64,000 nucleotides of DNA from Diplocarpon mali (Eukaryota > Ascomycota > Leotiomycetes > Helotiales > Drepanopezizaceae): contig JAENRP010000021.1 in NCBI GenBank assembly GCA_024741835.1, positions 124,001-188,000 of the forward strand, written 5' to 3'. The notes under the pieces are model-generated. The model was given only the letters and a program-made list of their open reading frames with translations, had not been told where the DNA came from and did no database searches. A program made the translations under genes and the position numbers. Positions 19,076-58,349 of this stretch are shown piece after piece (position 1 is the stretch's first letter; each line of letters opens with the position of its first letter).

Positions 19076-21330
19076 CCCTTACTTAGACCTTACTCCGATT
19101 AACCTGCAGTTAGGAAAATAATAACTATCCTTTTGCGCTAATCTAACTCTTAAGTATCTTTCCAAATTAAAAACAATCAATTAATAGTAACCTCTATTAA
19201 AATTACTAATCCTACTCGTAAGGCGGGACTAGGAGTTAAATTTCCAAAAGCGTTCCTTTATAAGACTATATGACTTAACTTGCGGTTTAGGCCTAGGAGT
19301 CGATTTAAAAAAAACTTTATTTTATAAGACTATATGACTTAACTCACAGGGCGGGCCCAGGAGTCGTCCTTAAGTCTACTAAGCCCCTACTATCTTCTAT
19401 AACCTTAGTATATCTTTAAACGCTTTGAACTTTGCAACTATCTCTAATAGCTTTATAAATCTATTTACTACTATTCGATCGGTTGGAATATAAGTAATTA
19501 ATAACTTATTCTTTGCAATAAGGTTATAGATAAAGTAATAAGTAATATTAATATATTTCAATCGCTTATACAAGTATAGATTCTTTATAAGTGCAATCGC
19601 CTTTATATTATTTGCTTAAAGATTAATATAATTCCTATCTTATCTAATATACTTAGCAAAACCTATATCTTTTAAAACTTAAGCGATCTATAATCCTTAC
19701 TTACAATTTGATAATATTAATATATATTTAGCCTTAGTGCTTGCAATAGCTACTAATTTCTACTTTCTACTTCCTTATAATATAAGTCCGCCATATAGCA
19801 TTATTACGCTTCTAGATATACTTTTCCAACCTTTTATATTTGCCTAATTAAAATTAGTATATACCTTAAGCTTTGCGCTTATATATTTCATTAGTCTATA
19901 TCTTACCTTTTATATAATTATCAATCGAAGGTACCTTTTAAGTCGCTTAACTGCATTCTTATATTAAATCGTCAGATCCTTTAAATTCTAATTAAGTTAC
20001 TTAATAATAAAGGCGATATTTAGTCTTATATATACTATAGTATATATAATTGCTCTAATATCTTATTAGTACTTCTTCAGATCTCTTCTTTACTTATTTT
20101 CATTAGTAGGCTTTAACTTATTATACTTTCCTTCGATTAGAGTATGCTTTAGCTTAAAGTTGGAAGCATAAGTGGAAAGTCCTATTCGGTCTAGGATCTT
20201 CTTAATATACTACTCTTAATCTAACCAGAGTTCTTAAGTAGAGCGGTTCTTTATAATACAGATGCTAAGGATCTTATAAATTCCCCTTAGATCCTTAGTA
20301 TTAAAACGTTTCCGAATTATTATAAAGAACCAATCTAATTAAGTAGTTGTTTTTATAGCTATAGTAATATCATTGATATATAGTAGCAACTTGATTCTAC
20401 GCTTAGCATAGGTAAATAGACAAAGGTCAGCTAGGCTTTAAATAAATCCCATTTCTACTAAAGTAGAGCTATATAAGAGGTTCTAATTATAAGCTAATTG
20501 TTTAAGCCTATAAATACTATAAAGTATATAAAGAAAGTGGCTAGCGCATATAGGAATACTATTAGATTGGGAGAGAAAAATCTATTCCTTTATAGTCGCT
20601 TTAGTAAATGCATTTTTAATATTATACTATTTGCATTTAAGGTCCTTAGCTGCTACTATTACTATAAATATATAAAGGGTATTTATATAAACTATTAGCG
20701 CGAATGTATTAAAGTAGTCTTTTCCATACTATTAGGAGAAGCCCTTAGCTATAAGCCTTGCTTTATAATATTTTAAGGTCTTATCTGCATATATTTTAAT
20801 TATAAAGACCCACTTTATTAATATCAAATTCACATCCTTTAGCGTCGGTTCCTTTATCTATATACTATTTATAATAAGAGAGCTTATCTCCTCTTAGATT
20901 GCCTTATTTTATACTACTCTATTCTTTAAGTTATTAATAGCTTTATTATATATCTTTAAAAGAGAGATTTTCATTATCCCCCTAGCAGCTAAGAACGCAT
21001 TATCTTCGTCAAAGCTCTATTGAAGTTTGAGCTTATAGATCTTATGCGCTATTATAGCTTAGATACGCTTAGACTTGCGTTTATCTAAGGTGTCTTCCAG
21101 TTCTAGGTCTCTATTCCTCTTTAAAGACGTAGGTTTAGCTATAGGTTCTATAGGCTTATTATTTAAGGAACCGCTTTCTAATAGTAAAGGCTTATTATTA
21201 CTTATACCTATTTTAAGAATATCCTTTACCTTAAGTGCTTTAACTAAAGGGATAATAATATCAAAGTTATTCTATACTTTAAGTAGTTCGCAAACAATAG
21301 GAATAGTCTATTCGGCCTTTAGGCGACCAA
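19076..21330 (-). pseudogene. Copia-1 reverse transcriptase and RNase H, RIP-broken
   Basis: Minus-strand homologue of 52.75-54.99 kb in Copia-2. Contains, from the LTR outward, a noncoding tail with three copies of the 23-nt GC-rich palindrome (19214-19236, 19278-19300, 19342-19364), RNase H and then RT, interrupted at 21330 by element A. Stops are frequent. Short plus-strand frames at 20498-20698 and 21075-21428 are antisense shadows of this region. Confidence 0.82.
19214..19364. repeat. Three copies of the 23-nt GC-rich near-palindrome (Copia-1 3' tail)
   Basis: Copies at 19214-19236, 19278-19300 and 19342-19364, 64 bp apart, each beginning ACTC/ACTT and ending AGGAGT around a GC core. 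They lie after RNase H, outside the presumed coding region. Confidence 0.8.
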
Positions 21331-21585
21331 TGTTACGACTCGCTCTCGAGCGTGCAGAAGGCGAGAATCGAATGACGCTGACTGTATTACCCCAAGAGGT
21401 ACGCTATGTAATTGAGAAGAAAAGATGAAGAAGAAGAGAGAGTCTCTAGTAGAGCTCCTTTAGAATAAGTATAGGTATATTACTAGCGCGCACGTGATCT
21501 AGCCACCTTACTACCTTAGCGGGCACCTGACTTCGTGCACCTGACTAATACGTGATATAACCGTATATATAATGCGGCTATAATA
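21331..21585 (-). repeat. Element A 3' LTR
   Basis: 255 bp; outer left part retains C/G (e.g. CTCTCGAGCG), inner right part is A/T-shifted. Confidence 0.94.
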
Positions 21586-21599
21586 CTACCCTCCCCCTT

Positions 21600-23230
21600 T
21601 GAAAAACTGCGCCTGCGCAATTGTATCTATAGGCGTATTGTCCTTTAGGTCCCTATAATCGTCAACTCCCTTATTATATGACCTAAGCTAGCTTAATAGC
21701 GCTCTTAGTGGCCCCTTAGCCTAAGGGTTTTTTAAATAGAAGTCTCAAATAGCATACGGCGCTATTATAGCATTAGAGCACAGGTACTATTCGAGGTCTT
21801 TATCAGCTCCTTTCCACTTAATCTGATATTTGAGCTTCTTAGCTCGAATATAAGATCCAATTATTTCTTCTATCTCCCATTCCTCTTATTCTGGTAGTAC
21901 TTTAATTAAAGTAAGAGGTTCCTAAGCTTGGCCTAGCAGAGGGTTAGGAATGTACTTTTGCAGTAAGTGGGAGTGGAATATAGGGTAGATCGAATGGAGC
22001 GAATCAGGCAATTGTACCTTCTAGCTTTCTCCTAGCTTTTCTAGTACTTTTACTAGGCTATACTACTTATTAGAGAGCTTTCGGCTCGGCCGGTCCAGTT
22101 TCCAATTCTTAATACTAATTAGCACGTTATCTCCTATAGTCTAATTAACTGGCTAGCGGTAGAGATTTGCAAGCCATTTCATTTTAGCTTATTATGCTTA
22201 GAGAGACGACTAGGCGAATTGGACTACTTTTTAAGCTCTAGTAGCTATGCGGAGTGCTATTTCACGATTTACTCTCTCGATTGCTATCCGTAGAGGCTTT
22301 AGGTTAATTAAATTCCATAAGGAGCGAGCTTCGTAGCCGTTTAGCACTTAGAAAGGGGAAATTTGCCTTAGGGATTTATAAGGCAAGGTTAATTGGGCAA
22401 TATCTATTAAAGGCAAGAGACGACTCTAATTATCTTAGTAGTATAAGTAGAACGGTCTGAGGCATTATTTTAAGTACTAGTTCATAATCTCAGTTTGGCC
22501 ATTAACATTAGGGTTATAGGCTATAGTTAGCTTGACCTTTGTACTTAGTATCTAATAGAGTTCTTTCTAAAAGGAAGAGACGAATTAGGCGCCTCTATCT
22601 AATAGAATTGAGTCGGGCATGCTAAAATGGCGTATCTAGTGAATTAAAAACAACTCTATAAAGCCTTTTGCATCGATCGAATTATGGCATAGAACCGAAA
22701 CTGCCTTCTTTAACAACCTATTGATAATTATAAGGGTAAAATTATAACCGAGTTCATTAAGCGGAAGCTTTATAAAATCCATTATCAAGTGTTGGTAAGC
22801 TCGTTCGGGAATTGGCAAGGGTTGCAGGAAACCTAAGGTCTTATTATAACGAGCTTTTATTCTTAAACAACGATAGTTCTAGATATAAGTGCCGACGTCG
22901 CTGCTAAGACTTTTCTAATAGTATTTTCTTCTTACTAGAAGTCTTATTTTCCTGATTCTAGCGTATGCGACGCAAGGTTGCTTATGCATATGATAAATCA
23001 GGGCTATTCGCAGTTTAGGAGGTTAGAATGGCATAACGAGTCTACCTTAGAAGAAGAGTTTACCTTAGCTAAGTTTATAGTCGAGGCTATACTTCTGCGC
23101 CTCGTCTCGGAATTTCTATAGCTTAAGGGAGGTCTTATTAGTTTAAATGACCTTATCAATAATGTAATAGCTTGCCATATTATACTCAACCTTAGACGTT
23201 AGGTCGGTAGGTGCCTTTATTAGCGCGATT
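21600..23230 (-). pseudogene. Element A integrase and chromodomain
   Basis: Chromodomain at about 21,690-21,890 on the minus strand: EEWEIEEIIGSYIRAKKLKY, then QIKWKGADKDLE, a clear chromo fold signature (E-x-E-I..Y-x-I-K-W-K-G). Integrase core lies at about 22,350-22,820: PIPERAYQHLIMDFIKLP holds the first Asp, DRGA.FVSSF the second and NGQTEIMNQYL the catalytic Glu. The intact stretch 22636-22818 (60 codons) is the best-preserved piece. Stops replace Trp/Gln elsewhere. Chromodomain integrases steer integration to heterochromatin. Confidence 0.88.
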
Positions 23231-24760
23231 GGCACAGTTGTTACTCGTAGGCCGGGCCCAGGAGTAGAATCGATCTGCGCTAAAGTCACTTATAGGCCGG
23301 GCCTAGGAGTAGAATCGCCTCTAATAGCGAGTACTTCTATAGAGAGCTTATCGTTGGGTAAGAGCTGCTAGTGGCGTAAAGCTCGTTTCCTGGCCTTAAG
23401 AGGGGTCAGCTCTTAGTCTCGATATAAGAGTATGTTAGCCAGCGTATTCGTTATGCCTATTTAGTATATGATAAGGAAGTTGAAATTAGCGAAGAACTCC
23501 GCCTAGTGAGCCTGCTGGGCTATTAAGTCCTTAGTTGTTATAAAGTACTTAAGGGCCTTATGATCTATATATACGTATACTATTTTCTAGGCCTTAAGTA
23601 GCTCTGCCTTATACTAATAGAACGATTTAAAAATCGCTAGGAGCTCCTTATTATAAATAGGGTAATTCAGCTCAGCGTTATTTATCGTCTTTAAGAAGTA
23701 CCTAATTAGGTAGTAGTTATCGTCTTCTTAGAGTTAGGAGAGTACGCTAGCAACTACGCCGTCGGAGGCGTCGGTCTTAAGCCTTGTCTGCTTTCGAGGG
23801 TGATAGTAGTATAAAATCGGGGTTATTTAAAGGCTTGAGCGCAGAGCTTCCTAAGCTTCCTTATAAGCATTGTTAAAGTTAAAAGGAACGTTTCCTATAA
23901 GAGCTATTAAGGGTCGGCAGATACGACTATAGCCTTGAATAAACCTTTAATAGAAGTTATAAAACCTAAGGAAGCTTTGTATACCGCGTACATTCTTGGT
24001 ATATTTCTACTCTTAAATGATTAAGACTTTATTAAAGTCTACTTTAATTCTGTAAACTTTAATAATAAACCCTAGGAACCTAGTCTTAGTAACCTCGAAC
24101 TCGCTTTTCTTAATATCTATTTAAAGGCCGTGGCATTAGAGAATTCCTAAGATCTTCTTAATATAAATCTTATAGTCAAGGGAGTTTTCTAAGTAGATTA
24201 GAATATCATCTAAGTAGGTAGAGCAGAAATCGTCGAGGTAGTTAAGGAGAATATTATTAATAAACCTTTAAAAGGTGGTAGGCCTATTTGTCAGCCCGAA
24301 TGGTAAAACCTTATATTTGTAGGTCCTATAATACGTGCGAAAGGTAATTAGGTCTTTGGCATCAGCTAATATGCAGATATAGTAGAAGGCTTATTATATA
24401 TCGATTTTTATAAAAACACAAGCTTTCGATATATATGCTATTATCTTATTAATAAAGGGAATCGGGTAGGAGTCTTTCTTTATTAGAGCGTTTAGTTTCC
24501 AGTAATCGACGTATAAACGTAGGGAGCTATTAGCTTTTCTAATAAAGAGGATTAGGGCTGCCTAGGGGGAACTTAAAGCTTTGATGAATCCTTTATATAG
24601 GTTTTTGAAAATATAGCTCTTGACCTTTAAGAGCTATTTGTCGGTAAGGCGGCAGAGGGGTTCGATTGTTAAGTTGTTCTCGCCTATTAGCTCGATTTTA
24701 TAATCTACCCCTAGTCTGGGTTCTGGCAGCTGATCAGAGGCCTAGCGACTAAAGATATTC
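23231..24760 (-). pseudogene. Element A reverse transcriptase and RNase H
   Basis: Minus-strand Gypsy RT and RNase H, reading past stops. The block IDIKKSEFEVTKTRFLGFII (about 24,060-24,115) is the classic end of Gypsy RT (K-x-x-F-x-x-x-x-V-x-F-L-G). RNase H follows to about 23.4 kb. Two copies of the 23-nt palindrome, 45 bp apart, lie at 23243-23265 and 23288-23310. Confidence 0.82.
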
Positions 24761-24899
24761 TTAAACTTAGCGTACTAAGGCAGGAGCTTCTGGTCTATTA
24801 GCTTATTATTGCTCTTATACTTAGCTTGCAGCGCCGAATTAAGGCTAAGGGAGCTAATTTCAGCTTGCCTAACCGATTCTCGGCGATTGATTTCTTAGT

Positions 24900-27260
24900 T
24901 TAGATCGTAAATAGAGCTTACAAATGTGAACTCTTTAGGCGCTGGTTCTTAAGTCTATATAGCTTGTCTTGCCCTAGTTGTAAAGCAGTAGTAGAGGGCG
25001 CCGATTGCTAAGGCTAAGATTAGGCTAATCTGGTAAGCCGGCTTTAGAGTAGCGTTCCTCTTCGCTAGGAGAGGGAGCAGGGGATCTGGTACTCCTAGCA
25101 AGGCCTTCTTTATATAGTTTAGATCTCTTTTCAAGTCTTTGAAGAAACTGCTATCCCTAGGTCTATAAGAGGCCATAGGAGTAGGAATCGAATTAGCATA
25201 TTTCACTCGCGGGCCGGGACCGGGAGTAGGATTCGAGTTCGCAGATTTCACTCGCGGGCCGGGACCGAGAGTAGGATTCGAGTTCGCAGATTTCACTCGC
25301 GGGCCGGGACTAGGAGTGGGATTCGAGGCGCTATTGCTTGCTAGCACTGAGAGCTAGGCTCGAGCCATTCTTAGGTCTTCGTCCTTAGCGTCTATTATAG
25401 CTGCTTAACGATCGACGTCTTGCTAGGCCATTAGGGGTTTTATTAGCTATAAGAGATCGATTAGTATACGTCGATTAAAGTAGGGGACAATAGGCATATC
25501 CTTAGGCTAAGAGATGCTGTTTTTCCCTTTTCCGTAGGATTGTTTAAGGTTATAGTGCTTTAGGAACTTCCTACCGATTAAAACGTCGGTTGCTCCTAAG
25601 CTTATAATTAGGAAAGGGAAGTTTATTCGTCGCCTATCGATTGTAAGGGTAAGTAAGACAGCGAATCGAATGGTTTCTCCCTTAAGGCTATTATAGCTAG
25701 TAGGGGTAATCGGTTTAAGCAGTTTAATGAACTTTACCTTAAGTCTTTAGGAGAGCTAGTATACTAAAGACGTCTTAATAATACTGAAAATATTAGCTCT
25801 ACTATTAATATAGGCAACTGTTTTAATAAATGATCTATTTCGAGCTAGTTCTATAGGAACTAAGAACTAGCGGCCGCCTATTAATAGGCGGGAATCAAAA
25901 TCCAAGTCTTTTTACAAATTGTGACCTATGCTATAGTAGGAGTCTTTGCTATAGCTTAGCAGTTTCCCGACAGCAGGTCGTTTTCCATTTTAACTTCAGC
26001 TACTATAAACTCGCCTTGCTTCTTTGGCTTCGGGCAGTCTATCGCATAGTAACTAAGGGCTCTGCAGTTGTAGCAGAGACTAGATAACGGCTTTAGGCTA
26101 GCAGACCTTTCTTAGTAAGTCGCCAGCGAGGGGGAATGAGTATAGGGAGCTAGAGAGGTAGCTATAGCAGTAGGTCTCTATGACTCCCTTTTTAATATGC
26201 TAAGGACGCGGTCCTTCGCAAGAGAGAACGCGATAGCAGGGGCGACTCATCGAGCGTTATAGGCCTCTTTTTACTTGATATTACAGGCCTCGCGGTCCGC
26301 AATAGCTAAGAACTCATTTAAAGTAGTATAATCATTATTCATTTTATACTTCTCTATTCAAAGGTCGTTCTTTAAGGCTAGGAAGACCTTTTTATAGACA
26401 TTATCAAACTAGCGAGACTGATCGATCTTTCTAGCTATAGTAAGGGTAATGAACTTAGATCGGAACTCGTTATATAATAATAAACCTATAGTTAGCCTGC
26501 TATATTTAAGCTTAGCGGACTGAATATAGTTATAGTTAAAGAACCTTTAATCTAAGACCCTAAGGATATTGGCAGCGCATATAAACTTATTAGCAAAGAT
26601 AGGATCTATATATTATAAGATTAGGTTCTAAGCTTTACCTATTATACACTTAAAGTAGGCAGTGATCTAGTCCTCTCCTAAAGTAAAGTTGCTTAAGTAC
26701 TCTTAAATAAATACCTTTATAGCCATCTTCCAGGCATTATAAGTGATTTCGCCCTAGTGGTTGCTAAAATGGGTTTAAAGGTACTTGATTCAATAGGGGT
26801 TGACGGCTAAGACTAAAGGTCTGATAATTAAAAGGTAATAGTCTAGGGGAGGCAGCAAGTCGGCGGTAAGGGACTGAGTGTTCCAAGGGCTAGCACTTAG
26901 GGAAGAAGGGGCAGCAGTATTGTTTTAGAAAGCGGCAGCTACAGCAGCGCTGACAAGGTTTGCGATTTCAGCCTGCTAGGCAGCTAAAAAGAGAGGGGCT
27001 AATATAGTAAGGGTAGACGTCGGTTCTTCCTTGACTTCAATCGACGGAAGGGGAGTATTTCGAGAATCTACTTGCGGTCCGGGACTGAGAGTGAAATCTG
27101 TACTAGGGGAGGTAGCTTCCTAAGTAGGCTTAGGAGGGGGAATATCTCTAGGACCGGGGTTGGCAGTAAGGCCTGGAGAACTGGTGGCAGTGAGGCCCGG
27201 TAGAGGTGCGGTTAACCTTTCACTCCTCCTAGGTAGCATAAGATTAGAGGTCATAAGTAT
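24900..27260 (-). pseudogene. Element A gag, zinc knuckle and protease region
   Basis: On the minus strand: gag from about 27.2 kb, a zinc knuckle at about 26,040-26,100 reading LCYNCRALSYYAIDCPKPKK (C-x2-C-x4-Y-x4-C, with the His codon changed to Tyr, a C-to-T effect), then the protease region, then a preserved 130-codon frame (24955-25347). That frame opens with three copies of a 15-residue repeat (PTPGPGPRVKSANSN) encoded by a 45-bp tandem array, then PMASYRPRDSSFFKDLKRD and a hydrophobic stretch LILALAIGALYYCF that could be a membrane segment. Confidence 0.75.
25205..25317. repeat. 45-bp tandem array carrying the 23-nt palindrome
   Basis: Three 23-nt copies at 25205-25227, 25250-25272 and 25295-25317, exactly 45 bp apart. 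Between them lies a conserved 22-bp spacer around ATTCGAGTTCGCAGATTT. On the minus strand each unit encodes PTPGPGPRVKSANSN or a close variant. The first copy has matching bases at 18 of 22 palindromic positions. Confidence 0.9.
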
Positions 27261-27299
27261 TAACTCTCTCTATATTATCTAGTTTAATCTAGAGGGACC

Positions 27300-28240
27300 T
27301 AATGCTAAATAGTAACCTATTCAAAAGAAGGAAGATCAGTATAGGCAGAGCTGTGTATATTCTTAAAGCCTTCTAGTAGAGTATGTATTAAGGTATCGTA
27401 GGTTTATAGATCTTAAGAAAGAAGGTTTTACTTTGGGATTACGTCTCTTTACTAATCAGGAGTTGCAATAAGGTTGCCTGAGGGTATAGTGCAAATCTAG
27501 GGAAGTAGGGTCCAGGGATCTAAAGCTTATTACTCTACCAAAGTTGACCTAGTCTCTAACGGTATAGTATAACCTACTAAGGCTGACCAAGTCTTTACGT
27601 ATATATATAGGTATAGGTCCCCTAGTTTGTACCTAAGTGTTTCGAAGGAAGGAGTGAGGGGCTTCGAAGAGTGTGAGGAGAGTTGTCGACGAGTATATTA
27701 TCGACGAGTATAAGAAGGTCGACGACTTATTTGTAAGGAGGGGTCTTCGAGGAGTCGAGTTATATTCGAGGCTTTCGCAGAAGAGGGGGAGTATCGAAGA
27801 GTATAAGGAGAGTTGTCAACGAGTATATTATCGATAAGTATAAGGTTGATAAAAAGAGTAATATAGAGTATTTGTAAGGGAGGGAGAGAGTTAGGAAGAG
27901 AAAAGTTATTATACTGCTTTAGGCAATAGCCTATACTAGCAAAGCGAGGGCATAGTGAATAATTTTTTTCGAATTGAACTTAAAGGTGAATCTCTATTTG
28001 CAAAATAGAGGAGGAGGTAAGGGGTCGAAAAAACGAGCTAATCTCGTATTCAAAGGTTATTTAGCTTTCTTTGAAAACTAGATTAGTAAGATGATCTAGG
28101 CGCTACGTACGAGTTGCTTAAGGCAGTTCGTAGTAGAAGTCGAAATCGAGAGATCGAGTTGCTTAAGGCAGTTCGAAATGACGATTCTAAAGGTGGTAGA
28201 TATTAAGCTTCTTAGCAGAGGTTAAGTTGATCTTTTCTTA
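27300..28240 (-). other. Element A 5' leader, with a duplicated 51-bp block
   Basis: Untranslated region between the 5' LTR and gag. Contains a direct repeat: about 27,663-27,713 and 27,794-27,844 (both starting TCGAAGAGTRTRAGGAGAGT and containing GAGTATATTATCGA). No gene is supported. Confidence 0.6.
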
Positions 28241-28495
28241 TATTACGACTCGCTCTTAAGCGTGCAAAAGGCGAGAATCGAATAACGCTAACTGTATTAC
28301 CCTAAGAGGTACGCTATATAATTGAGAAGAAAAGATAAAGAAGAAGAGAGAGTCTCTAGTAGAGCTCCTCCAGAATAAGTACAGGTGCATCACTAGCGCG
28401 CACGTAATCTAGCCACCTTGCTACCTTAGCGGGCACCTGACTTCGTGCACCTGACCAACATGTGACATAACCGTATACGTAATGCGGCCGTAACA
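28241..28495 (-). repeat. Element A 5' LTR
   Basis: 255 bp; inner left part A/T-shifted, outer right part retains C/G (ends GCGGCCGTAACA). Confidence 0.94.
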
Positions 28496-28500
28496 ACCAA

Positions 28501-29956: not shown

Positions 29957-29961
29957 CTTGC

Positions 29962-30255
29962 TATGACGGTGGAAGCAAGGCATAAGTCGATAAAGTCACT
30001 GAGATCAAGGCTGCCAAATCGTATAGAATTCAAAGCTAAGGAGTATATATAAAGTAGGGAGCCTTCCTTTTAATATGCTCTCCTTAGCTTACGACTCTTA
30101 GAAGTCGATTTCTATTAATAAGTCATATTCTATCTACTAAAGGAAAGGTATAGTAAAGGTGCGGCGTATTTATTACATTAGTCTATTTCGCCTCTGTTTC
30201 TACTTAGATAGTTCTTATGCTTTTATCGCAACTATAGTATAACTATGCTATAATA
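29962..30255 (-). repeat. Element B 3' LTR
   Basis: 294 bp; outer left part retains C/G, inner right part A/T-shifted relative to the partner at 37736-38029. Confidence 0.93.
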
Positions 30256-31750: not shown

Positions 31751-31799
31751 AGTTTAAAGGGAGGGTGGTCTTTATTATATGTTCTAAATAGGTGTATTA

Positions 31800-43524: not shown

Positions 43525-43839
43525 TGTAACGGCACAGAACCGCCGAGATGCGAGATCAAGTATAGGAGCAAGAAGTAGTGCAAAAGGCGTATTCTATAGG
43601 TCTAATACAAAGGAAACGAAGAAGTTAGAGAGCCCTTTCTATAAGAGAGCCCTTCTCCCTTATATATATAAGCAGCTCCAAGCTCTTTGCCCGTTTATAT
43701 AATATTATGTAAGAATATCCTTTTATACCTTTAAGGTCGATTCGAAATAACCCTATATCGAATCGAGATTGCAAAACTTTAAAACGCTATAATACCGTAC
43801 TCCTAGGTAATTGCACTAATTGGAGATGCAGCTGTTATA
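43525..43839 (-). repeat. Element D 3' LTR
   Basis: 315 bp; outer left part unmutated (TGTAACGGCACAGAACCGCC), inner part mostly A/T-shifted. Confidence 0.94.
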
Positions 43840-45090: not shown

Positions 45091-45099
45091 TATTATTTT

Positions 45100-49084: not shown

Positions 49085-49089
49085 AAGAG

Positions 49090-49284
49090 TGTTAAGATGG
49101 GTGATACAGCTATCACTCCGATGTATTGTTATATGACCCTACTGCTTAGTTAGTAGGATATTGATATATATATAGCTATAGGGAAGAAAGGGGTAACCTT
49201 CTTTCCTTAACTCTTACTAATATATCAACTATCGACCTCTAGAAGTTTCCTATACCTATTGCGCCGACTCACTTAAGCTTAATA
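49090..49284 (+). repeat. Copia-2 5' LTR
   Basis: 195 bp; outer left part retains G/C (TGTTAAGATGGGTGATACAG), inner part A/T-shifted. Confidence 0.95.
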
Positions 49285-49620
49285 GGTTATAAGCCCTGGA
49301 TAGACCGATAATAGATTATTAACTTCCTTTAGAAAGCACTTGCGCTGCAACTGTTAGTAGGAAGTTAAACGAGACTTGTAGTAAGAGGCGAGCAATCGGC
49401 GAATAGGAGGTGTGATTCCCTATTCAGCCAACCCGTATTGCAAGAGGTATGATTCCTTGCTCTATAACCCTTTGGTACTGCAAGAGGTGTGATTCCTTAC
49501 TTTACTGTATTTCGTAGGAGGTATGATTCCCTATGTTATAGCTTAAAAACCCTTTTCGATAAGAGGACTTCCTCCCTATTTAATACTTCTATAACACCTG
49601 CTATTTAATCATTTTAACTT
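49285..49620 (+). repeat. Copia-2 PBS and 5' leader repeats
   Basis: The PBS GGTTATAAGCC resembles the complement of the anticodon loop of methionine-initiator tRNA (GGTTATGAGCC with one G-to-A). From about 49,407 to 49,525 four spaced copies of AGGTRTGATTCCYT follow, most preceded by GCAAG or GTAGG. The same repeats occur in Copia-1. Confidence 0.7.
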
Positions 49621-50600
49621 TTCAATAGGAGGAGTGCCCTTAACCATTTAATTTATTTGATTTTAAATGCAATTCTATTTGAAATAGCAATAGCATCCGA
49701 TTCCGATTGAAACACTAAGCCTAAAGACCTCTAACTCTCTTAGAAGAACTGGCAATAATAGTTCGACGATTTAGAGCTTTACTTTAAGAGCAAAGGCATT
49801 AAAATGGCGATTCAAAAGACACTTATTAAATACGCAAAAATAGCCCCCTATACTCCCTCTACCGATTCGTCTACTTCTACTTTAATAGCTAATACAACTG
49901 CTAAGGATTTGCCAGATATACTAAATAAGCTTAGCCTAAGAGCTTTAGTAGATAATAATTGAGAATCCTAAAGGCAGATTTTAAATATGGAAAAGGAGAA
50001 GGAGTATAAGCTAGCCTTAGCCAAATGCAAGCTTAAGATTAATAGAGGTTTAAGCGATAAAGATCGAGATTTTATTTAAGTTTATAATAATACGAAGATA
50101 AGATAGGATACTTTAAAGGTAAAATACTCTCGGACAACTGCCCTTAATACTTAGTATCTGCTATAGCGGATCACTTCATTTTAATATAGAAAAGACAAAG
50201 ATAGTAAGGATATAGATATAAATATAGACTCTACTTAGTCTATACTGCGTAAAGCGAGGAGGAGAGTAAGAGCCGCAGATCCTAGGATAGCTATGACTTT
50301 TAAGGAAACTCAGCTTTTTAGTTTCCTACTTAATAGCCTCCCTCCTAAGTTCGCCGTTATAAAACAATCTCTTCTTATCTAACCCAACCTTAAGATCTAC
50401 GAGAAGATCGACTTCCTTCGAACTGTCGAGCAAGACCTCGAAGGACACTCTAAATCGGCAAATACCGCATTATAGGGCAACAATAAGCCCGAGAAGAGGA
50501 AGGAGCGCGGGACGAGCCCTTAAGCTCATCGGGGATGCTACTTCTATAATAGTGCTTATAATATTACTAATTGTAAAGTTAGAAGGCAACTGATCAATAT
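49621..50600 (+). pseudogene. Copia-2 gag
   Basis: Reading past stops: NWQ.WFDDLELYFKSKGIKM, then AIQKTLIKYAKIAPY (about 49,750-49,840) is a Copia/UBN2-type gag start. A middle part follows (LFSFLLNSLPPKFAVIKQSL; KIYEKIDFLRTVEQDLEGHS), then the zinc knuckle CYFYNSAYNITNCKV at about 50,540-50,580 (CCHC with one Cys and the His replaced by Tyr). The gag packages the element RNA. Confidence 0.82.
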
Positions 50601-51123
50601 AGTCGCTAGCTTTAACATTAAGAAGCAATTGAAGCAGAAGTTAAGAAGCAAACTGCCCTTATCCCACCGAAGGCCGCAACTACTAAGGAAAGGCAAAGGA
50701 AAAGGCTATTCAATTAGAACTTTAGCAGATACCTCTAATAACAATAGTAGGTTATTTGAACCTGAATCCACTTCCGATAATTCAGACGATAATTATAATA
50801 AAGATGCCTATATCTTAAAAGCCGATCTCTATAAGATCCCTGAATCCGACTGGTATAGTAATACTAGTTGCATAGTATATATGACTGACAAACCCTACCT
50901 ATTTAAAGGCCTACTTACTAAAATAAAAAGGCGCTCTATTAAGGTTAGTGGTAGAAGGTTGTATACGGACTTAATAGGTATAGTAGAGATGAATGTCGCT
51001 AGCGTTTCTTTCCTTTTGCAAAATGTTCTCCTTATACTTAGCTTAAGCATCAATCTCTTATCTAGCCGCAAGATCTATACGGAATTAAATTGTATAAGAG
51101 TTTTTAATAATCAATTCATATAG
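50601..51123 (+). pseudogene. Copia-2 protease and linker
   Basis: A 164-codon open stretch (50629-51123). A Lys/Arg-rich start is followed by an acidic linker (EPESTSDNSDDNYNKD) and the protease site SDWYSNTSCIVYMTDKPYLF, where Copia proteases have W-x-x-D-S/T-G-x-x-x-H-M-T; the catalytic Asp and the Gly/His appear lost (Asn, Cys/Ser, Tyr). Then come KIKRRSIKVSGRRLYTDL and NLLSSRKIYTELNC. One of the longest unbroken pieces in the stack. Confidence 0.75.
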
Positions 51124-51209
51124 TTTATAAATAATAACTATAAAGTGATTTTCAAGGCCAAAATCAAAAATAGACTTTATATTATCTTAAAGGTAATATT
51201 ATAAAAATT

Positions 51210-51595
51210 GACTCCTAGGCCGGACCTATAAGTGAATTCCTTTAAGGAAAGTGCACTCTCCGCCCTAATACAATTAAGCGAGGATAGGGAGAATAGATGG
51301 ACTCTTAAGCTGGGATCATAAGTGAATTTGGCAGAAATGACTCCTAGGCTAGGACCGCGAGTAGATTCTGCAAATTCGCTAACAACGACTCTTAGGCTGG
51401 GATCGCAAGTGAAATTCGCAGAAATGACTCCTAGGCCAGGACTGCGAGTGAAATTCGCGAATTCGTTAGAGACAACTCCTAAGCTGGGACTGCGAGTGGA
51501 TCTTGCTATTTCTAGGAAATCGACTCCTAAGCCGGGACTGCGAGTAGATCTCGCGGTTTTACTAAAAACGACTCCTAAGCCAGGCTCGCAATTAG
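51210..51595. repeat. Degenerate eight-copy array of the 23-nt palindrome (Copia-2)
   Basis: About eight copies of a GACTCCTAGGCYRGGAYYGC-GAGT-like motif at irregular 35-90-bp spacing. In the plus-strand frame they encode TPRLGPRVDSA, TPRPGLRVKFA, TPKLGLRVDLA and TPKPGLRVDLA, i.e. repeats of T-P-[RK]-x-G-x-[RQ]-V. They lie between protease and the HHCC finger. Confidence 0.88.
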
Positions 51596-51639
51596 AAAAC
51601 GGCAAAACCTCGAACTGCTATCATTAGTCCTTTCCAGCC

Positions 51640-52660
51640 GCCGATGATGAAGTATCAACTGACAACGGGCTACTAAAGCTATTAAAAGCCGAAAGCCTAT
51701 TAAGGTATTAGCTAATGCATAGAAGATTCGCGCATCTAGGGCTAGAGAAATTGAGGGGCTTGCATAAGGTCTTAACCCTAAAACGGAAGATCTAAGTACC
51801 GAAGGATCGCCTAGTGTGCCGAATTTGCAAGCTAATAAAACTTCGAAATCGGACGCGAACTAAGCTTAGTCTATAGAAAGATTCGATACTAGCGCTAATA
51901 TCTATCGATACTGCCGGACTATTTACAACCTCGATCAAAGGAAATAATTAGTTTTCTCAAATAGTAGATAACTCCACTCGGCAGACATAGACCATTTGCG
52001 CTAGGACTAAATCTAAGCTTATAGAAAAGCTGGAAACTTAGAAAGTGATAGAGGAACGCTAGACCTAGTTAAAGCTAATAGCTATTAGGTCTAATAACGC
52101 ATTAGAGATTAGAGTAAAGCTTAACAAATGGGCAAAATAAGGAGTTCGTTACAAACTAACTGTAATATACGAAGGTTCCTATTAGAATGGCATCGCTGAG
52201 CGAAGCATCTAATAAGTAGAGACTGACTATCGCGCTCTACTGCGAGATGCTGACCTGCTATTAGAATTCTAGGACCTTGCGGTTAAGGCAGACGCATACT
52301 TACGAAATAGAACAGGTAGTGGACTAATAGTCAATAGCACCCGAATATCGCCATATAAGGCATATTTCGAATAGAAACTAAGCCTGGACCATATCCGTAT
52401 CTTTAGAAGCGTCTGCTACTCCTATATTAGCCCGAAGTCCTGGCCCGCGGGTATAAAGAGTAAGAAGCTAATAGACTGAGGTAGAGAGTATGTATTTATT
52501 AAGTATATTAAATAGATAATAAAGCAATAGATAGTATATGCGCTAGATCTAAGGCGAGTAATCACATCCTTAGTAGTTGAGTTTAACAAATCTTAAAATA
52601 AGAGGGAGCTGTCCTTAAAGCTCCGCATACCTAGAGATTCGCAAGGTATACCACTCGACG
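51640..52660 (+). pseudogene. Copia-2 HHCC zinc finger and integrase
   Basis: LMHRRFAHLGLEKLRGLHKV with CRICKLIKLRN downstream is the HHCC finger (about 51,715-51,850). The integrase core follows: LISIDTAGLF (first Asp, near 51,900), then NGIAERSI (catalytic Glu region, near 52,190), then SPYKAYFE and RIFRSVCYSYI. Stops occur throughout. Confidence 0.85.
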
Positions 52661-54690
52661 GTAATACTATTAAGCCGAACTAATAACCCCTTTCTCTTAG
52701 CTCAGGCATATTAAGCGCACCCGCTGATCAACGACCAGCTAGTCGTCCAAAGGCCGAATAGACCATTCCTATTGTCTGCGAACTACCTAAAGTACGGAAC
52801 AACTTCGATATCGTCGTCCTTTTAGTTAAAGCGCCTATAGTAAAGGATATTCCTAAAATAGGTACAAGTAATAATAAGCCTCTACTACTAGAAAGCGGTT
52901 CCCCAAATGATAAGCCTATAGAACCCACAGCCGAACCTACGTCCTTAAAGAGGAATAGAGACCTAGAATTAAAAGACACCTTAGACGAACGCGAGTCTAA
53001 GCGTATCCGGGCTATAATAGCGCATAGGATCTATAAGCTCGAACTTCAATAGAGCTTCGATAAAGATAATGCGTTCCTAGCCGCTAGGGAGATAATGAAA
53101 ATCTCTCTTCTAAAGACGTACGACGAAGCTGTCAATAACCCAGAGAATGGAGCAGCATAAAGTAAGGCAATCTAAAAGGAGATAAGCTCTCTTACTGCAA
53201 ATAGCATATAGATAGAGGAACCGACGCTAAAGGACGTGAACTTAGTATTAACGAAGTGGGTCTTTATAATTAAGATATATGCAGATAGAACCCTAAAGCG
53301 TTATAAGGCAAGGCTTATAGCTAAGGGCTTCTCCTAATAGTATAGAGAAGACTACTTTAATACGTTCGCGCCAATAGTTCGCATGGACACCCTTCGCATA
53401 TTTATAGTGATAGTAGCCGCTAAGGACCTTGAATGCAGATAGTACGATATTAAAAATGCATTTATTAAAGCGACTATAAAGGAACGGATTTTTCTCTCCC
53501 GACCTAACAGTATTTCTATACGCGCTAGCCACTCTCTTTGTATACTCCGCAGTATCTATAGGCTCAAATAATCAGCCTATGATTAGAACCTCTTATATAG
53601 CTCTGCTCTAGTGGAAATAGGATTCGTTCAAAGCCTAGCTAACCCTTGTCTATTTACCTATACTAAGCGTAGAATCAAGTTGCTACTATATATCGACGAT
53701 ATTACTACAGCTGCGAAAACAACTACTCAATTGGATTGGTTCTTTATAACGATTCAGAAACGTTTTAATACTAAGGATCTAAGGGGAATTCATAAGATCC
53801 TCGGCATCTGCATCATAAGGAACCGCTCTACTCGAGAACTCTGGTTAGATCAAGAGCAGTATATCAAGAAGATCCTAGACCGAATGGGACTCTCTACTTA
53901 TGCTCCCAACTTCAAGCCAAAGCGTACTCCAATTAAAGGAAAGTATAATAAGTTGGAGCCTGCTAATGAAAATGAGCAAAGAGGAGATCTAAAGAAGTAC
54001 TAATAGGACATTGGAGCGATTATATATGCTATAGTATATATAAGACCAGATATCGCCTTTGTCATTAAGCAACTTAGTCAGAACCTAAAGGATCTGACAA
54101 TTTGATATAAGAATGCAGTCAAGCGACTTAAAAGGTACCTTCGATCGATAATCATATAGAAGGTGAGATATAGACTAACGAAACATATAAGCGCAAAGCT
54201 CAAGGTATATACCGATTCCGACTAGGCAAATATGAAAGGTCGGAAAAGTATATCTGGAAGCGTAGCAGTACTATATAGTAGACCTATGTCATAGGGAAGT
54301 AGGAAGTAGAAATCAGTGGCTACTGCAAGCACTAAGGCCGAATATATATCGATATCATCAAATTGCAAGCAAGGATTATAGATCGCCTAAGTTCTAAAAG
54401 ATATAGGTTTCACTAAGTATATTAGATGAGATAGGAACTGTATTGATCTCCAAGTAGATAATATAGGGGCGATTGCACTTATAAAGAATCCACACTTATA
54501 TAAGCGATCGAAATATATCAATATTGCCTACCACTTCATCTGCGACCTTATTGCAAAGAATAAGTTGTCGATCACCTATATCTCAACCGATCGAATAATA
54601 GTAGATGGATTTACAAAGCTACTAAAGACGGTTGTAAAGTTCGAAGCGTTTAAAGATATGCTAAGGTTATAGAAGATAATAGGGGCTTAG
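52661..54690 (+). pseudogene. Copia-2 reverse transcriptase and RNase H
   Basis: Copia RT from about 53,240: LTKWVFIIKIYADRTLKRYK, then ARLIAKGFS; NTFAPIVRMDTLRIF; and the largely intact 53611-54003 frame with LLLYIDDITTAAKTTTQLDW (the Y-x-D-D core is Y-I-D-D here, intact). RNase H at about 54,190-54,660 contains YTDSD.ANMKGRKSISGSVA, then STKAEYISISSNC, QVDNIGAIALIKNP and YHFICDLIAKNKLSI. Stops replace Trp/Gln. Confidence 0.88.
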
Positions 54691-54704
54691 CAGGCTTAAG
54701 GACG

Positions 54705-54854
54705 ACTCCTGGGCCCGCCCCGCGAGTTAGGTTACGTAGTCTTATAGAGGAAAGTTTTTAGATCGACTCCTAGGCCTGGACCGTAAGTTAAGTTATATAG
54801 TCTTATAAAGGAATATCTTTTAGGAAATTTGACTCCCGGTCCCGCCCTACGAGT
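54705..54854. repeat. Three copies of the 23-nt palindrome (Copia-2 3' tail)
   Basis: Copies at 54705-54727, 54766-54788 and 54832-54854, after the RNase H stop. They are the counterparts, on the opposite strand, of the three copies in the Copia-1 tail. Confidence 0.85.
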
Positions 54855-54992
54855 AGGAATAGTGATTTCAATAGAGGTTGCTATTAATTGATTATTTTTA
54901 ATTTAAAGAGATACTTAAGAGTTGGATTAGCGCAAAAGGATAATTGTTATTTTCCTGACTGTAGGTCAATCGGAGTAAGGTCTAAGTAAGGG

Positions 54993-55187
54993 TATTAAGA
55001 TAGGTGATATAGCTATCACTCTAATATATTATTATATAACCCTACTGCTTAGTCAGTAGGATATTGACACGTATATAGCTATAAGGAAGAAAGGGGTAAC
55101 CTTCCTTCCTTAACTCTTACTAATATATCGACTATCGACCTCTAGAAGTTTCCTATACCTACTGCGCCGACTCACTTAAGCTTAATA
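54993..55187 (+). repeat. Copia-2 3' LTR
   Basis: 195 bp; inner left part A/T-shifted, outer right part retains C/G. Confidence 0.95.
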
Positions 55188-55192
55188 AAGAG

Positions 55193-56324
55193 TTAAGATC
55201 TAGCTTTAATAAGTCGCACTTTCGCAAGCCTAAGTAAGAGTCTTTTCCTAAGCCTTTTCGTTTTCCTAATCTTCTTCCGTTTTAACCCTATTCTTAATTA
55301 AATCTAAAGTCGGATCATCTTCCTTTATATCTTTTAAGGTATTAATCTTACTTATAGAAGGATACTTAATCTTATAGTAACCAGTTTTGCTATAGGTCTA
55401 GTAAGTAGCTTACTTAAAGGGCAAAGTAAGAGAACTAGCCTTAGCTGGCGTATCTTAGTAAAAAGGGGTAATAGGCTTTAGGGCTAATAGCCTAGAAACT
55501 TAAGTGGTATTTCTAGCGCTCGGACTGCAAGCGGTCTTATTAAAGAGCGAACCGGATATCTTCTAATATAATACTAAGGTTATCTTACTTTTAATCGAAG
55601 GGTTAAGAAGTTGGTTACTTTAGCGTTTAGCATTAAAGGCATTCAATTGGTTAACTATAATAGTATAGTCCTTCCTTTAAAAGGCCTTAGCTAAAGCGTA
55701 AGTAGCTCTAAGCTAAGGGGTAATCTTATTTTATATAAAGAAGAACCACTTAGATCTTAAGACCTTTTCTTAAATTATAGTAGATTAGAATTAGGTATAA
55801 AATTAAAGGAAAGTTTCTTTAAAATAATTAGCTTCTCTTATATAAAGGTAATAGAAAGTGGATTAAAATAGGTCTACCTCTTAGCTAATTAAAAAGTAAC
55901 TGCTTAACAGCTCTACTATTTCTTAATAGTTCCGAAAGGAGTTAGTCTCTAAGAGGTACTAGGGTTTAAGGTACATTTAGGCTTATCCTATAGTAGATCC
56001 TTAAATAAGAGCTTAGCGAGCTCGCTTATTTAGATATAAGTTAGTATTAACTTATAATCGGTCTTAAACTAAAGCTAACTACTACTTATATATTAAAGAG
56101 GTTCTATTATTAAAAGGGGTGATCTTTTCAATTAGCTGAATTTTTAGCTGTTTTATATCTATATCGACTTCTAAAGGAGGCTAAGTCTTGCGAGGGTAGG
56201 TAGAATCTCGCTTAGTAGTCTAATATACGCGCTAAGCCGTCTCTTAGCTTTAATAAGCTAGGGTCTTTAGGCTAAAGATAGCCTAAGCAATCCTACTAAT
56301 CTTACTTTATAATTATCAATTAGA
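55193..56324 (-). pseudogene. Element D gag (C-terminal part)
   Basis: Minus-strand degenerate coding DNA between Copia-2 and E, placed where gag of D is expected. It reads basic near the left end (RKKIRKTKRLRKR). No zinc knuckle could be made out. The assignment rests mainly on position. Confidence 0.45.
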
Positions 56325-56328
56325 TTAA

Positions 56329-56575
56329 TATAAGACAGAGGGGAGACAACATAAGAATAGGCCTAAGGGAAGACCTAAAAACAAGAGGAAGGAAGCACTA
56401 TAAGCGGGCTCTCTGAAGATAAGAACTAGGATAATTCACTAGTTAAGGGTAGAATAAGTAGTTAGTATTGCGCGCTATCTCTAAGTATAATAGTAGTCTT
56501 ATATATACCCCTTTCTTAATCCTTATCTAACTATATGACTTATATTATAAGATCCTCTACTTTTAGGTCTTTATA
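56329..56575 (-). repeat. Element E left LTR
   Basis: 247 bp; outer left part retains C (GACAGAGGGGAGACAAC), inner right part A/T-shifted. Confidence 0.92.
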
Positions 56576-56726
56576 TATGCCTTAACTAACTTAAGTAGCA
56601 GCCCCCTGCTACTATTAGCGAAGATATAAGGCTTTTGCAAGCCGAGAATACTAATCCCTATTTGCAAATAAATAATAAGTGCAAGTAAGGTTAATACCTA
56701 AAGTTGTAAAGGTAGGGAGAGGAGAG

Positions 56727-56850
56727 NNNNNNNNNNNNNNNNNNNNNNNNNNNNNNNNNNNNNNNNNNNNNNNNNNNNNNNNNNNNNNNNNNNNNNNNNN
56801 NNNNNNNNNNNNNNNNNNNNNNNNNNNNNNNNNNNNNNNNNNNNNNNNNN
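56727..56850. other. Assembly gap (N)
   Basis: 124 undetermined bases inside element E. An apparent 62-codon frame across it has no meaning. Confidence 0.99.
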
Positions 56851-56904
56851 CGGTAGTAAATAAATAAAAATGATAGAAACTCCTTTTCCTCTTTTAATAA
56901 CGCG

Positions 56905-58349
56905 ACTCCTAGTCTAAGACCGCGAGTTAAAAGCTTAAAGTTATTAGAGCTATTAAATCGCAGTTTTAAAGAAAATTCGAAGACAATTTCAAGTAATCCT
57001 AAGTATATATGCCCTAACTAACTTAAGAGGCATCCTTATTAAAGAAAATCTAGGCTTTGTATAAAATTCGATTAATAATTTAGGAATTTCTTTAATATAG
57101 CTATATTCAATTATTAAGCTTCTTTAAGGTAGCAACTCGCTTATTTAACTTAAGGGAAGCTGGATTTAGGTATTTAAAGTTCGTATGCTAGTTTTTACCT
57201 TTTAGAGCCTATCGATTTTCAAACTAAAGGGCGCGATAAGTTTCCTAAAGAAGGCCCTTGATTAAGGTTTCTAAATATTAGATATAGAGTTTAGAAAACT
57301 AGGCTTTGAGTTCCTTAATTTTTAAAGCAGATTTCACTCCTAGGCTAGGACTGCGAGTAAAGGGAATTACTATTGGATTTCTCTTTGCCTCCTTTATAAC
57401 TTCTAAAGCCTTTAAGTGTTTTTAAACCAAGCTCTTAAGGTCTTTAGTATAAGAGGGAGTAGGGGATTTTTCCTATTCTATAGCATTAATAGTTCTCTTA
57501 TTAAGATCTGATTTCAAAGCAAAGGCCGAGAACTCCTTAAATAAGGCAAAGGTTATAAGGTCTTATTTATCAATCTTAAAATTCTTAATAATCTTATTGC
57601 AAAGGCTAGTAGGTAATTTAAGTAAGAAAAGGCGGCCTCTTTTAACTTCGCTAAGTATTTTCTAATTGATTAAGGTATTTAATACTTAAGTGAAGGTCCG
57701 ATAGTAGTTTTTAAGTTCCTTAGGAGTGCGAGTAATAAGAATAAACTCCTTTAGAAAGGCTAGAGTATTGCGAATCTGCTATCTATTAAATTCTTAAAAT
57801 TCAGCTTTAAGAGCCTTAACGAGTAGTTCCTAGGACTTGCGAAGCTTCTACTTAGGCAAAGATTTGATAATATCTTTACTAGTTTAGTTGTAGTAGTGGG
57901 AAAGTTAATTGATTATCTTATTATATCTAATGCCGAAATTATAATAAGTCTCCTTATATTATTTAAAGAAATTAGTAATATTAGCTCTAGTGAAATAAAA
58001 AGCGCTAAGGGAACTAAGGAAGGGAAAATGATTAGTAATAGCTTTAAAGGCGGCTATTATCACTTTATTTATTTTAATAGGAGGGGAGTTAGGTCGAATA
58101 TAGGGCCTAAGGTGTTCTAAGGAGTTTTCAGAATCTAAGTTAATCTTAGAGTGACTAGGGCGAGCTTGAAAAGATTTGGGCAAAGGGTCGAAAGGAGGTT
58201 TAAAATTAATATTTTTAGTATTTTCAAGTGTTAATATTGAAAAAGCAGGTGCAATTGTCAAAGGGGAAGGTATTAAAGGAGAAGGCGAAGAACTTGAGTT
58301 ATATAAAATTGCATTTTTATATTCCTACTCGCGGGCCTGGCCTAGGAGT
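56905..58349. repeat. Three dispersed copies of the 23-nt palindrome in element E
   Basis: Single copies at 56905-56927, 57336-57358 and 58327-58349. The last keeps a high GC content (starts ACTCGCGGGCC, ends CTAGGAGT) in otherwise AT-rich DNA. Confidence 0.82.

What the first reader, a model, noticed from the sequence alone, without database searches (positions are those of the whole stretch)
19214..58349. A 23-nt GC-rich near-palindrome shared by unrelated retroelements
A motif starting ACTCGCGG and ending AGGAGT (or its complement) recurs in Copia-1 and Copia-2 (Copia), element A (Gypsy) and element E (gag-only). Examples: 19214, 19278, 19342, 23243, 23288, 25205, 25250, 25295, 27070, 54705, 54766, 54832, 56905, 57336, 58327, plus arrays at 29,660-29,940 and 51,210-51,595. 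The best copy matches its own reverse complement at 18 of 22 paired positions. These elements share no other obvious sequence, and the motif stands out as GC-rich in RIP-altered DNA. It occurs both in coding frames and in 3' tails after RNase H, so coding constraint alone does not explain it. It may be a tiny hitch-hiking palindromic repeat (compare mobile GC clusters of fungal mitochondria) or a binding site used by several families.
Basis: seen in the sequence. Interest (0 to 1): 0.85.

Follow-up and report, generated by a model that had tools for sequence, protein, structure and literature searches.

The report
Palindrome shared by unrelated fungal retrotransposons
In a plant-associated fungus, a 23-letter near-palindromic DNA word recurs thousands of times inside several unrelated jumping genes, at different places and in both directions, which suggests that a very small repeat has been passed between them.

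Summary
All 15 listed copies and both arrays are present. A RIP-tolerant 23-nt pattern matches 6,251 times in the 49.4-Mb genome, its reversed control 0 times. A profile finds 215 copies in 262 kb of chosen regions and none in one Markov null. Copies lie in two Copia lineages, a Ty3/Gypsy lineage and less well typed elements, at non-homologous places and in both orientations: in spacers between domains or frames and in a 3' tail, none in the LTR kinds probed (0 of 215). Two other LTR elements of the window have none. Outside the tail all eight distinct neighbour spacings are divisible by 3. Translation is supported in Copia-B, uncertain in Copia-A and Gypsy-A, contradicted at some sites. Variation is dyad-symmetric: positions 9, 12, 15 vary, the other 20 hardly by transversion. 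One common ancestral linker is rejected. Best reading: a tiny palindromic repeat spread laterally between retroelements and grew in tandem, like Rickettsia palindromic elements but in nuclear transposons. Movement is inferred; no empty/filled pair outside arrays was found.

The parts
18881..40225 (-). Copia-A copy 1 (Copia-1), interrupted by Gypsy-A (21330-28493) and another LTR element (29962-38022); 11 motif copies
   Evidence: LTR and inverted-repeat matches; profile hits per element
19214..19364 (+). Copia-A copy 1, 3' tail: three motif copies (19214, 19278, 19342), spacing 64/64
21330..28493 (-). Gypsy-A element (LTR about 254 nt); integrase piece 22639-22878 matches the Ty3 Gag-Pol chain 7q5b (E 6.3e-6)
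   Evidence: Pfam gave no match
23243..23310 (+). two motif copies just 5' (in sense) of the Gypsy-A integrase piece, in its frame
   Evidence: only three alignments for the shared-stop test, so not informative there
25205..25317 (+). array of three motif copies, 45-nt unit, downstream of a Gypsy-A protease-like piece (by reading), inside open frame 24958-25353 (-); a stop shared by all copies lies 39 nt before it in the same frame
27070..27092 (+). single motif copy in the gag-side region of Gypsy-A; shared stops in the motif frame at -30 and +114, so probably not read in frame 0
29646..29938 (+). Copia-A copy 1, array (seven copies, 39/48-nt spacing)
38079..38101 (+). Copia-A copy 1, outermost array unit, beyond the nested element
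49085..55187 (+). Copia-A copy 2 (Copia-2): Pol_BBD-like piece 50524-51120, RVT_2 piece 53587-54000
   Evidence: RVT_2 above, Pol_BBD below the Pfam cut-off
51211..51593 (-). Copia-A copy 2, array of eight motif copies between the Pol_BBD-like piece and the RT (integrase side by Copia gene order, not by profile); same frame as both pieces, but bounded by stops shared by all aligned copies
54705..54854 (-). Copia-A copy 2, 3' tail: three motif copies, spacing 61/66, behind a stop (54688) that all 16 aligned copies have in the frame of the RNase H-like piece
   Evidence: RNase H label by reading, no profile or PDB match
56326..59324 (.).
   Evidence: 56727-56850 reads N
29962..38022 (.). LTR element (LTR about 287 nt) without a motif copy: contrast
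43527..60163 (.). Outer Ty3/Gypsy element (LTR about 300 nt; RT piece 47856-48149 matches Ty3 7q5b, E 2.4e-12); its own 7,535 nt hold no motif copy (best match 5.0 bits): contrast

Best explanation
The 23-nt word (core of a weaker 35-nt palindrome, RAWTY-n-[23]-n-RAATY) is a very small repeat that spread laterally between co-resident LTR retrotransposon families and was then amplified with them. Shown: a discrete unit, non-homologous positions, both orientations, tandem growth and loss by whole units, unit lengths divisible by 3 outside the tail. Inferred: it enters spacers between domains or frames and the 3' tail because those tolerate it. In frame 0 both strands read through it as a similar Gly/Pro/Arg-rich peptide (TRGPG[L/P]GV or TP[R/G]PG[L/P]RV), so insertion either way round does little harm where it is translated. 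Its self-complementarity would let reverse transcriptase switch templates between RNAs packaged together, carrying the unit from one family to another and duplicating it in place. It works like the protein-coding palindromic repeats of Rickettsia, but on retrotransposons.
For: Copia-A and Copia-B align only at RT/RNase H-like pieces (about 25-46% protein identity) yet carry arrays at different places: before the RT and integrase side in A (element positions 2127-2509), behind the integrase SH3-like piece and in the gag tail in B. Gypsy-A has an array behind its protease-like piece and two copies before integrase. Both orientations occur, even within Copia-B. Outside the tail all eight distinct spacings are multiples of 3 (108 of 108 pairs, not independent); in the tail one of four (5 of 20 pairs). 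In Copia-B the motif frame has no stop shared by all copies at the gag site (13 alignments) or the second array (19), the other frames 3-6. Array units come and go between sister copies. At four orthologous E comparisons (about 70-75% identity) 4 of 12 free cells and 1 of 80 others changed by transversion, against about 8% around; one changed its half-site type, as unit exchange would. Patchy by family: 31 copies in four window elements, none in two others.
Against: No empty/filled pair outside an array; single sites fixed in the copies examined. No target duplication visible at the listed sites (read). Flank similarity beyond RAWTY/RAATY exceeded a 300-permutation null in one of three spans only (0.000, 0.063, 0.170; related sites inflate the first). 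Frame keeping is not universal: in Copia-A and Gypsy-A, stops shared by all copies in the motif frame lie before the array (offsets -90 and -9; -132, -108 and -39) and in Copia-A also behind it; the Gypsy-A gag copy fits another frame better; in an L014 open frame only one of three copies is in frame 0 and one pair is 107 nt apart. No moving agent was identified. The symmetric constraint could be functional.
Confidence: 0.47

Rival explanations
1. A selected cis-acting site used by several families: either a self-complementary RNA dimerisation/packaging signal (which would work in either orientation and anywhere in the transcript) or the binding site of a dimeric host or element protein. Unrelated families share it because each needs the same partner.
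For: Dyad-symmetric constraint: transversions at positions 9, 12, 15 (29 of 81 cells, positions picked after the fact) and almost none at the other 20 (7 of 540); position -1 is a pyrimidine in 58 of 58 half-sites while position 0 is free. It persists in the tail. A 6-nt GC-rich palindrome is the proposed Ty3 RNA dimerisation site (PMC11381356, passages); palindromes are proposed for Ty1 (PMC4974528, passages). Sireviruses carry repeated palindromes, most with a CGG-CCG core (PMC2829016, passages and section 9).
Against: RNA folding is inconsistent: 4 of 8 copies have z below -2, two are positive. No motif pair covaries across 56 site representatives (lowest shuffle fraction 0.06). No centre in the seven LTR kinds probed (0 of 215), where a promoter-type site would be expected. 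Two LTR elements in the window do without it. Arrays of eight or nine units look more than a site needs.
Confidence: 0.31
2. A selected peptide linker: the Gly/Pro-rich stretch between polyprotein domains is useful (spacing or cleavage), and DNA similarity follows from codon use.
For: Unit lengths divisible by 3 outside the tail; no shared stops in the motif frame at two Copia-B sites; variable positions 9, 12, 15 (and 0, 24) are third codon positions in frame 0 on both strands.
Against: Third positions 3, 6, 18 and 21 show no transversions, though Thr and Gly codons would allow them; copies lie behind the pol stop in the Copia-A tail; shared stops flank the Copia-A and Gypsy-A arrays; both strands serve as sense.
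Confidence: 0.07
3. Vertical inheritance: one ancestral gag/pol linker carried the motif before Copia and Gypsy families diverged.
For: The tail sites of Copia-A and Copia-B lie at similar distances behind the aligned RNase H-like ends (36 and 91 nt), so that one pair could be ancestral.
Against: Arrays sit at different places and in different orientations in Copia-A, Copia-B, Gypsy-A and E; two elements lack it.
Confidence: 0.05
4. A target site for nested insertion of other retroelements, shared for that reason.
For: One element is inserted about 30 nt from an array unit in Copia-1 (window 29962).
Against: The other nested junctions found lie 94-1465 nt from the nearest copy with no visible clustering (not tested formally).
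Confidence: 0.03
5. Chance or composition artefact of GC-rich words.
For: None.
Against: 6,251 against 0 control matches; 215 against 0.
Confidence: 0.005

Closest known systems
Rickettsia palindromic elements (RPE) and the protein-coding palindromes of Wolbachia and Methanocaldococcus
   Same: Short palindromic repeats present in frame in unrelated genes, in parts of proteins that tolerate insertion (PMC10969869 passages; PMC2996958 passages).
   Different: RPEs are about 150 bp and dispersed in bacterial genes. This unit is 23 nt (about 35 with the weak arms), often in tandem, in fungal nuclear retrotransposons, also in a tail behind the pol frame, and its translation is supported only at some sites.
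[quoted passage not shown]
   Same: Tandem in-frame repeats whose DNA has imperfect dyad symmetry, in part linked to mobile elements, some in eukaryotic microbes (PMC2996958, abstract and passages).
   Different: 75-nt unit, 25-residue amphipathic domain, many in membrane proteins; here the unit is shorter and Gly/Pro-rich.
Sirevirus repeated motifs (plant Copia genus)
   Same: High-copy palindromic words, most with a CGG-CCG core, in otherwise very divergent retrotransposons (PMC2829016).
   Different: They lie in LTRs and beside the env-like gene, differ between elements and belong to one Copia genus. Here one 23-mer is shared by Copia and Gypsy, with 0 of 215 in the LTRs probed.
GC clusters, PstI palindromes and MUSE1 of fungal mitochondria
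   Same: Very short repeats thought to be mobile (PMC7218506 passages).
   Different: Mitochondrial; here nuclear and, in my sample, inside retrotransposons.
RNA dimerisation palindromes of Ty3 and Ty1
   Same: Self-complementary word in the transcribed part of an LTR element.
   Different: The Ty3 site is 6 nt, near the 5' end; here 23 nt, 3-11 copies per motif-bearing window element.
Coding palindromes in Nematomorpha mitochondrial genes
   Same: Inverted repeats inside protein-coding genes of a eukaryote (PMC6649704, abstract).
   Different: Long perfect inverted repeats (up to 284 bp), not one word repeated across unrelated elements.

Membership tests
Rickettsia palindromic element-like coding palindrome | palindromic repeat | tested here: met
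   mean 13.8 of 22 self-complementary positions against 5.9 for shuffled copies; best 22 of 22
Rickettsia palindromic element-like coding palindrome | in-frame presence in unrelated proteins | tested here: inconclusive
   23 of 23 copies that I anchored (chosen sites in Copia-A, Copia-B, Gypsy-A, L013) are in frame 0; shared-stop test supports translation at two Copia-B sites, not around the Copia-A and Gypsy-A arrays nor at the Gypsy-A gag copy; L014 one of three
Rickettsia palindromic element-like coding palindrome | insertion shown by empty orthologous sites | tested here: inconclusive
   only array-unit differences found; single sites fixed in copies examined
Rickettsia palindromic element-like coding palindrome | sequence homology to RPE families | not tested
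   no RPE sequences were compared; no homology claimed
PARCEL | 25-residue amphipathic repeat, 75-nt period | tested here: not met
   main periods 39/45/48 nt, Gly/Pro-rich peptide
MITE / classical DNA transposon derivative | target-site duplication | tested here: not met
   none visible at the 27 listed sites (read); flanks are inverted, not direct
Sirevirus repeated motif | location in LTR and env-side linker of a Copia element | tested here: not met
   0 of 215 in the seven LTR kinds probed; also in Gypsy-A
RNA dimerisation site | drives RNA dimer formation | not testable with these tools
   folding of single copies inconsistent
Known structured RNA | match to an Rfam family | tested here: not met
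   at gathering thresholds only Afu_309 at 15345-15631 in the window

The most novel reading that the evidence does not exclude
A sub-genic selfish repeat that lives on retrotransposons: a palindromic cassette that moves between unrelated Copia and Gypsy elements during reverse transcription, because its self-complementarity pairs (and co-packages) RNAs of different families. It would be a parasite of parasites and a shared 'dimerisation code' that makes unrelated retroelements exchange sequence.
Probability: 0.2. Interest if true: 0.88.

Novelty: new variant of a known kind. Interest (0 to 1): 0.65.

Why it matters
Palindromic repeats that spread through unrelated genes are described from bacteria and archaea, and coding inverted repeats from mitochondria. 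A nuclear case with over 6,000 copies, in my sample inside retrotransposons and shared by Copia and Gypsy, would be a tractable system in which gains and losses can be counted across strains and sister species. It bears on how unrelated retroelements exchange sequence, how spacers in their frames evolve, and whether selfish units exist below the size of a transposon.

Tried and rejected
Tried without result: (1) shared flanks as a sign of transfer: one of three spans above a 300-permutation null, the others not. (2) Covariation of paired positions: none in the motif. (3) A stable RNA hairpin as common denominator: inconsistent. (4) Nested-insertion target: no clustering seen (its first version failed with a script error). 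(5) Viral contigs: 5 contigs with one match each, about what I would expect by chance, not examined further. (6) Protein relatives of the Copia-B array frame: 0 of 271 candidates; of the Copia-B gag piece: 1 of 38, a 107-aa Diplocarpon coronariae protein that ends before the motif region, although a host-gene control found 878 relatives (the named ones among the 120 listed are fungal). (7) Within-family transversion rates: 0.40% at 20 positions, 3.02% at the free ones, 2.15% in flanks, but 1,546 non-independent pairs, little weight. (8) Copies lacking the motif in E and F: none among 40 scored of 393 and of 272 candidates. (9) Gypsy-A gag copies up to 27 nt longer than the query: the four fetched all keep one motif copy at the same site; the extra length in the two longer ones aligned lies elsewhere. 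(10) PDB matches for the Copia-A RNase H-like and RT pieces: none.

Corrected on checking: I first treated the Copia-A and Gypsy-A arrays as translated linkers; the shared-stop test does not bear that out, so I lowered the best explanation from 0.50 to 0.47 and the peptide rival from 0.10 to 0.07, and raised the cis-site rival from 0.28 to 0.31. A stop directly behind the RNase H-like piece is in only 10 of 17 copies; the one at 54688 is in 16 of 16. Rejected: chance, one common ancestral linker, a microsatellite; a promoter-type LTR site is disfavoured.

Papers: passages only for PMC10969869, PMC7218506, PMC11527701, PMC5628827, PMC11381356, PMC3414828, PMC4974528; abstract and passages for PMC2996958; abstract only for PMC6649704; passages and section 9 for PMC2829016. 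That I found no description of this motif in print rests on ten searches of one open library, of which I saw the listings.
Full report
OBSERVATION. A weight matrix found 215 copies in 262 kb (the window plus twenty 8-10-kb regions that I chose because they held matches, so this is not a genome average) and none in one Markov resample. In the window 31 hits score 20 bits or more; only two others exceed 3 bits. Genome-wide there are 609 exact matches to the fixed ends with a gap of 5-12 allowed (reversed control 1; every listed match, the list being capped, has a gap of 9) and 6,251 to a RIP-tolerant form (control 0).

WHERE IT LIES. The genome is 49.4 Mb in 676 contigs. Its mitochondrial L28 protein has as nearest named relative Diplocarpon rosae (88%), and a gag piece has its only relative in D. 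coronariae (82% over half the query). I infer a Diplocarpon, perhaps D. coronariae, whose published assemblies are about 50 Mb with about 34% repeats, more than half of that Copia (PMC11527701, passages). In the window the copies fall in two Copia-A elements (11 each), Gypsy-A (6) and the gag-only element E (3). Two more LTR elements, 8,061 and 7,535 nt, have none (best match 5.0 bits), one of them Ty3-like by its RT. All 28 extra loci around listed genome matches (L001-L008, L034-L053) fall in repeated elements: 25 in families already seen, 3 (L045-L047) in a further family F, of which 40 scored copies out of 272 candidates span the site. An isolated match on contig 1 lies in an E-like relic. 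None of 215 centres is inside an LTR of the seven kinds probed, which cover 13.4 of 262 kb. Host genes were not surveyed genome-wide.

NOT ONE ANCESTRAL LINKER. Pieces of Copia-A and Copia-B proteins align at RT and RNase H-like stretches at about 25-46% identity; otherwise, among aligned stretches of 30 residues or more, only the arrays match each other, and these lie at different places: positions 2127-2509 in A, between a Pol_BBD-like piece and the RT; behind an integrase SH3-like piece (E 0.002, below Pfam's cut-off) and in the gag tail in B. Gypsy-A, identified by its integrase piece matching Ty3 (E 6.3e-6; Pfam gave nothing), has an array behind a protease-like piece (by reading), two copies just before integrase and one on the gag side. 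Both orientations relative to sense occur. Only the tail sites of Copia-A and Copia-B are near-homologous in position (36 and 91 nt behind the aligned ends), so a shared ancestor for that pair is possible.

FRAME. Outside the Copia-A tail all eight distinct neighbour spacings up to 110 nt in Copia-A, Copia-B and Gypsy-A are multiples of 3 (39, 45, 48, 54, 66, 72, 78, 90; 108 of 108 pairs, not independent). In the tail one of four is (61, 64, 65, 66; 5 of 20 pairs), and one pair in E3 is 107 nt. Anchored to neighbouring or surrounding frames that I chose, 23 of 23 copies are in frame 0: 8 in Copia-A, 5 in Gypsy-A, 9 in Copia-B, 1 in L013; in the tail of Copia-A-2 2 of 3. Of 26 copies inside open frames of 150 codons or more, 21 are read in frame +0, 3 in -0, 1 in +1 and 1 in -1; 18 of the 21 are antisense frames of Copia-A arrays, and the L014 frame holds +0, +1 and -1. 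A stricter test asks for stops that all aligned copies share. In Copia-B the motif frame has none at the gag site (13 alignments) or the second array (19), the other two frames 3-6. In Copia-A the array is free of them but bounded by shared stops at -90, -9 and +414; in Gypsy-A shared stops lie at -132, -108 and -39 before the array; at the Gypsy-A gag copy they lie at -30 and +114 while the +1 frame has none; the copies before integrase had too few alignments. So translation is well supported in Copia-B, uncertain for the Copia-A and Gypsy-A arrays and unlikely in frame 0 for the Gypsy-A gag copy. The Copia-A tail lies behind a stop that 16 of 16 copies share in the RNase H-like frame (54688), so protein constraint on pol cannot explain its conservation there. 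Arrays gain and lose whole units between sister copies.

ANATOMY. Across 27 chosen site representatives (several from one array), transversions from the majority base are 29 of 81 cells at positions 9, 12 and 15 and 7 of 540 at the other twenty (counted). Flanks carry a weaker inverted consensus, RAWTY and RAATY, with a free base on each side of the 23-mer; position -1 is a pyrimidine in 58 of 58 half-sites. Beyond about 5 nt no robust similarity between families remains. The free positions are third codon positions in frame 0 on both strands, but so are 3, 6, 18 and 21, which do not vary by transversion; coding alone is not the rule. Paired positions do not covary, and folding z-scores of eight copies range from +1.4 to -3.4. 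At four comparisons of orthologous E sites, transversions hit 4 of 12 free cells and 1 of 80 others, against about 8% in surrounding sequence; one site changed half-site type, which looks like replacement by another unit. The remaining variation is mostly C-to-T and G-to-A change, as RIP would cause.

MECHANISM. I favour lateral spread of a small palindromic repeat among retroelements, with tandem growth in place. Shown: a discrete unit, independent positions, both orientations, array turnover, unit lengths divisible by 3 outside the tail. Inferred: insertion into tolerant spacers and tails, harmlessness in either orientation because both strands read as Gly/Pro/Arg-rich peptide, and transfer by template switching between co-packaged RNAs. 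The main rival is a selected cis-acting site (RNA dimerisation or a dimeric protein), which the symmetric constraint also fits. Against mobility stands that I found no empty/filled pair outside arrays and that single sites are fixed in the copies examined.

KNOWN KINDS. Coding palindromes of Rickettsia and relatives, PARCELs, Sirevirus palindromic repeats, fungal mitochondrial GC clusters and Ty dimerisation palindromes are the closest that I found. None of these, as described there, combines a 23-nt unit, tandem arrays, copies behind the pol frame and sharing between Copia and Gypsy. Ten searches of one open library showed no description of this motif (listed in Tried and rejected).

Noticed in passing
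window 51180-51617 (-) and the same array in L015, L016, L018, L021, L022: The antisense strand of the Copia-A array is one uninterrupted frame of 145-159 aa in several RIP-altered copies, while the sense frame is bounded by shared stops. Whether it is ever used is unknown.
   Followed up: partly
window 29962-38022 and 43527-60163: Two LTR elements of 8.1 and 7.5 kb (own sequence) lack the motif while their neighbours carry 3-11 copies.
   Followed up: partly
L016 8779-8801 (-): A single copy in an untyped element that matches its own reverse complement at 22 of 22 paired positions (sequence; maximum).
   Followed up: no
Copia-A array linkers, e.g. window 51388-51475: Some spacers between motif copies look near-palindromic themselves, so the array seems to alternate two palindromes (read).
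   Followed up: no
window 15345-15631 (+): Match to Rfam RF01512 (A. fumigatus sRNA Afu_309), 143.8 bits, E 5.3e-39, beside a SART-1 family gene.
   Followed up: no
L001 and L013 (451-3877): The E-like region is continuous with a zinc-knuckle-like and protease-like stretch in two copies, so E may be a gag-only derivative of a longer Gypsy-type element (by reading, Pfam gave no match for the L013 piece).
   Followed up: partly
window 18881-40225 and 43527-60163: Nested LTR insertions: Gypsy-A and a second LTR element inside Copia-A, and Copia-A plus E inside an outer Gypsy element.
   Followed up: partly
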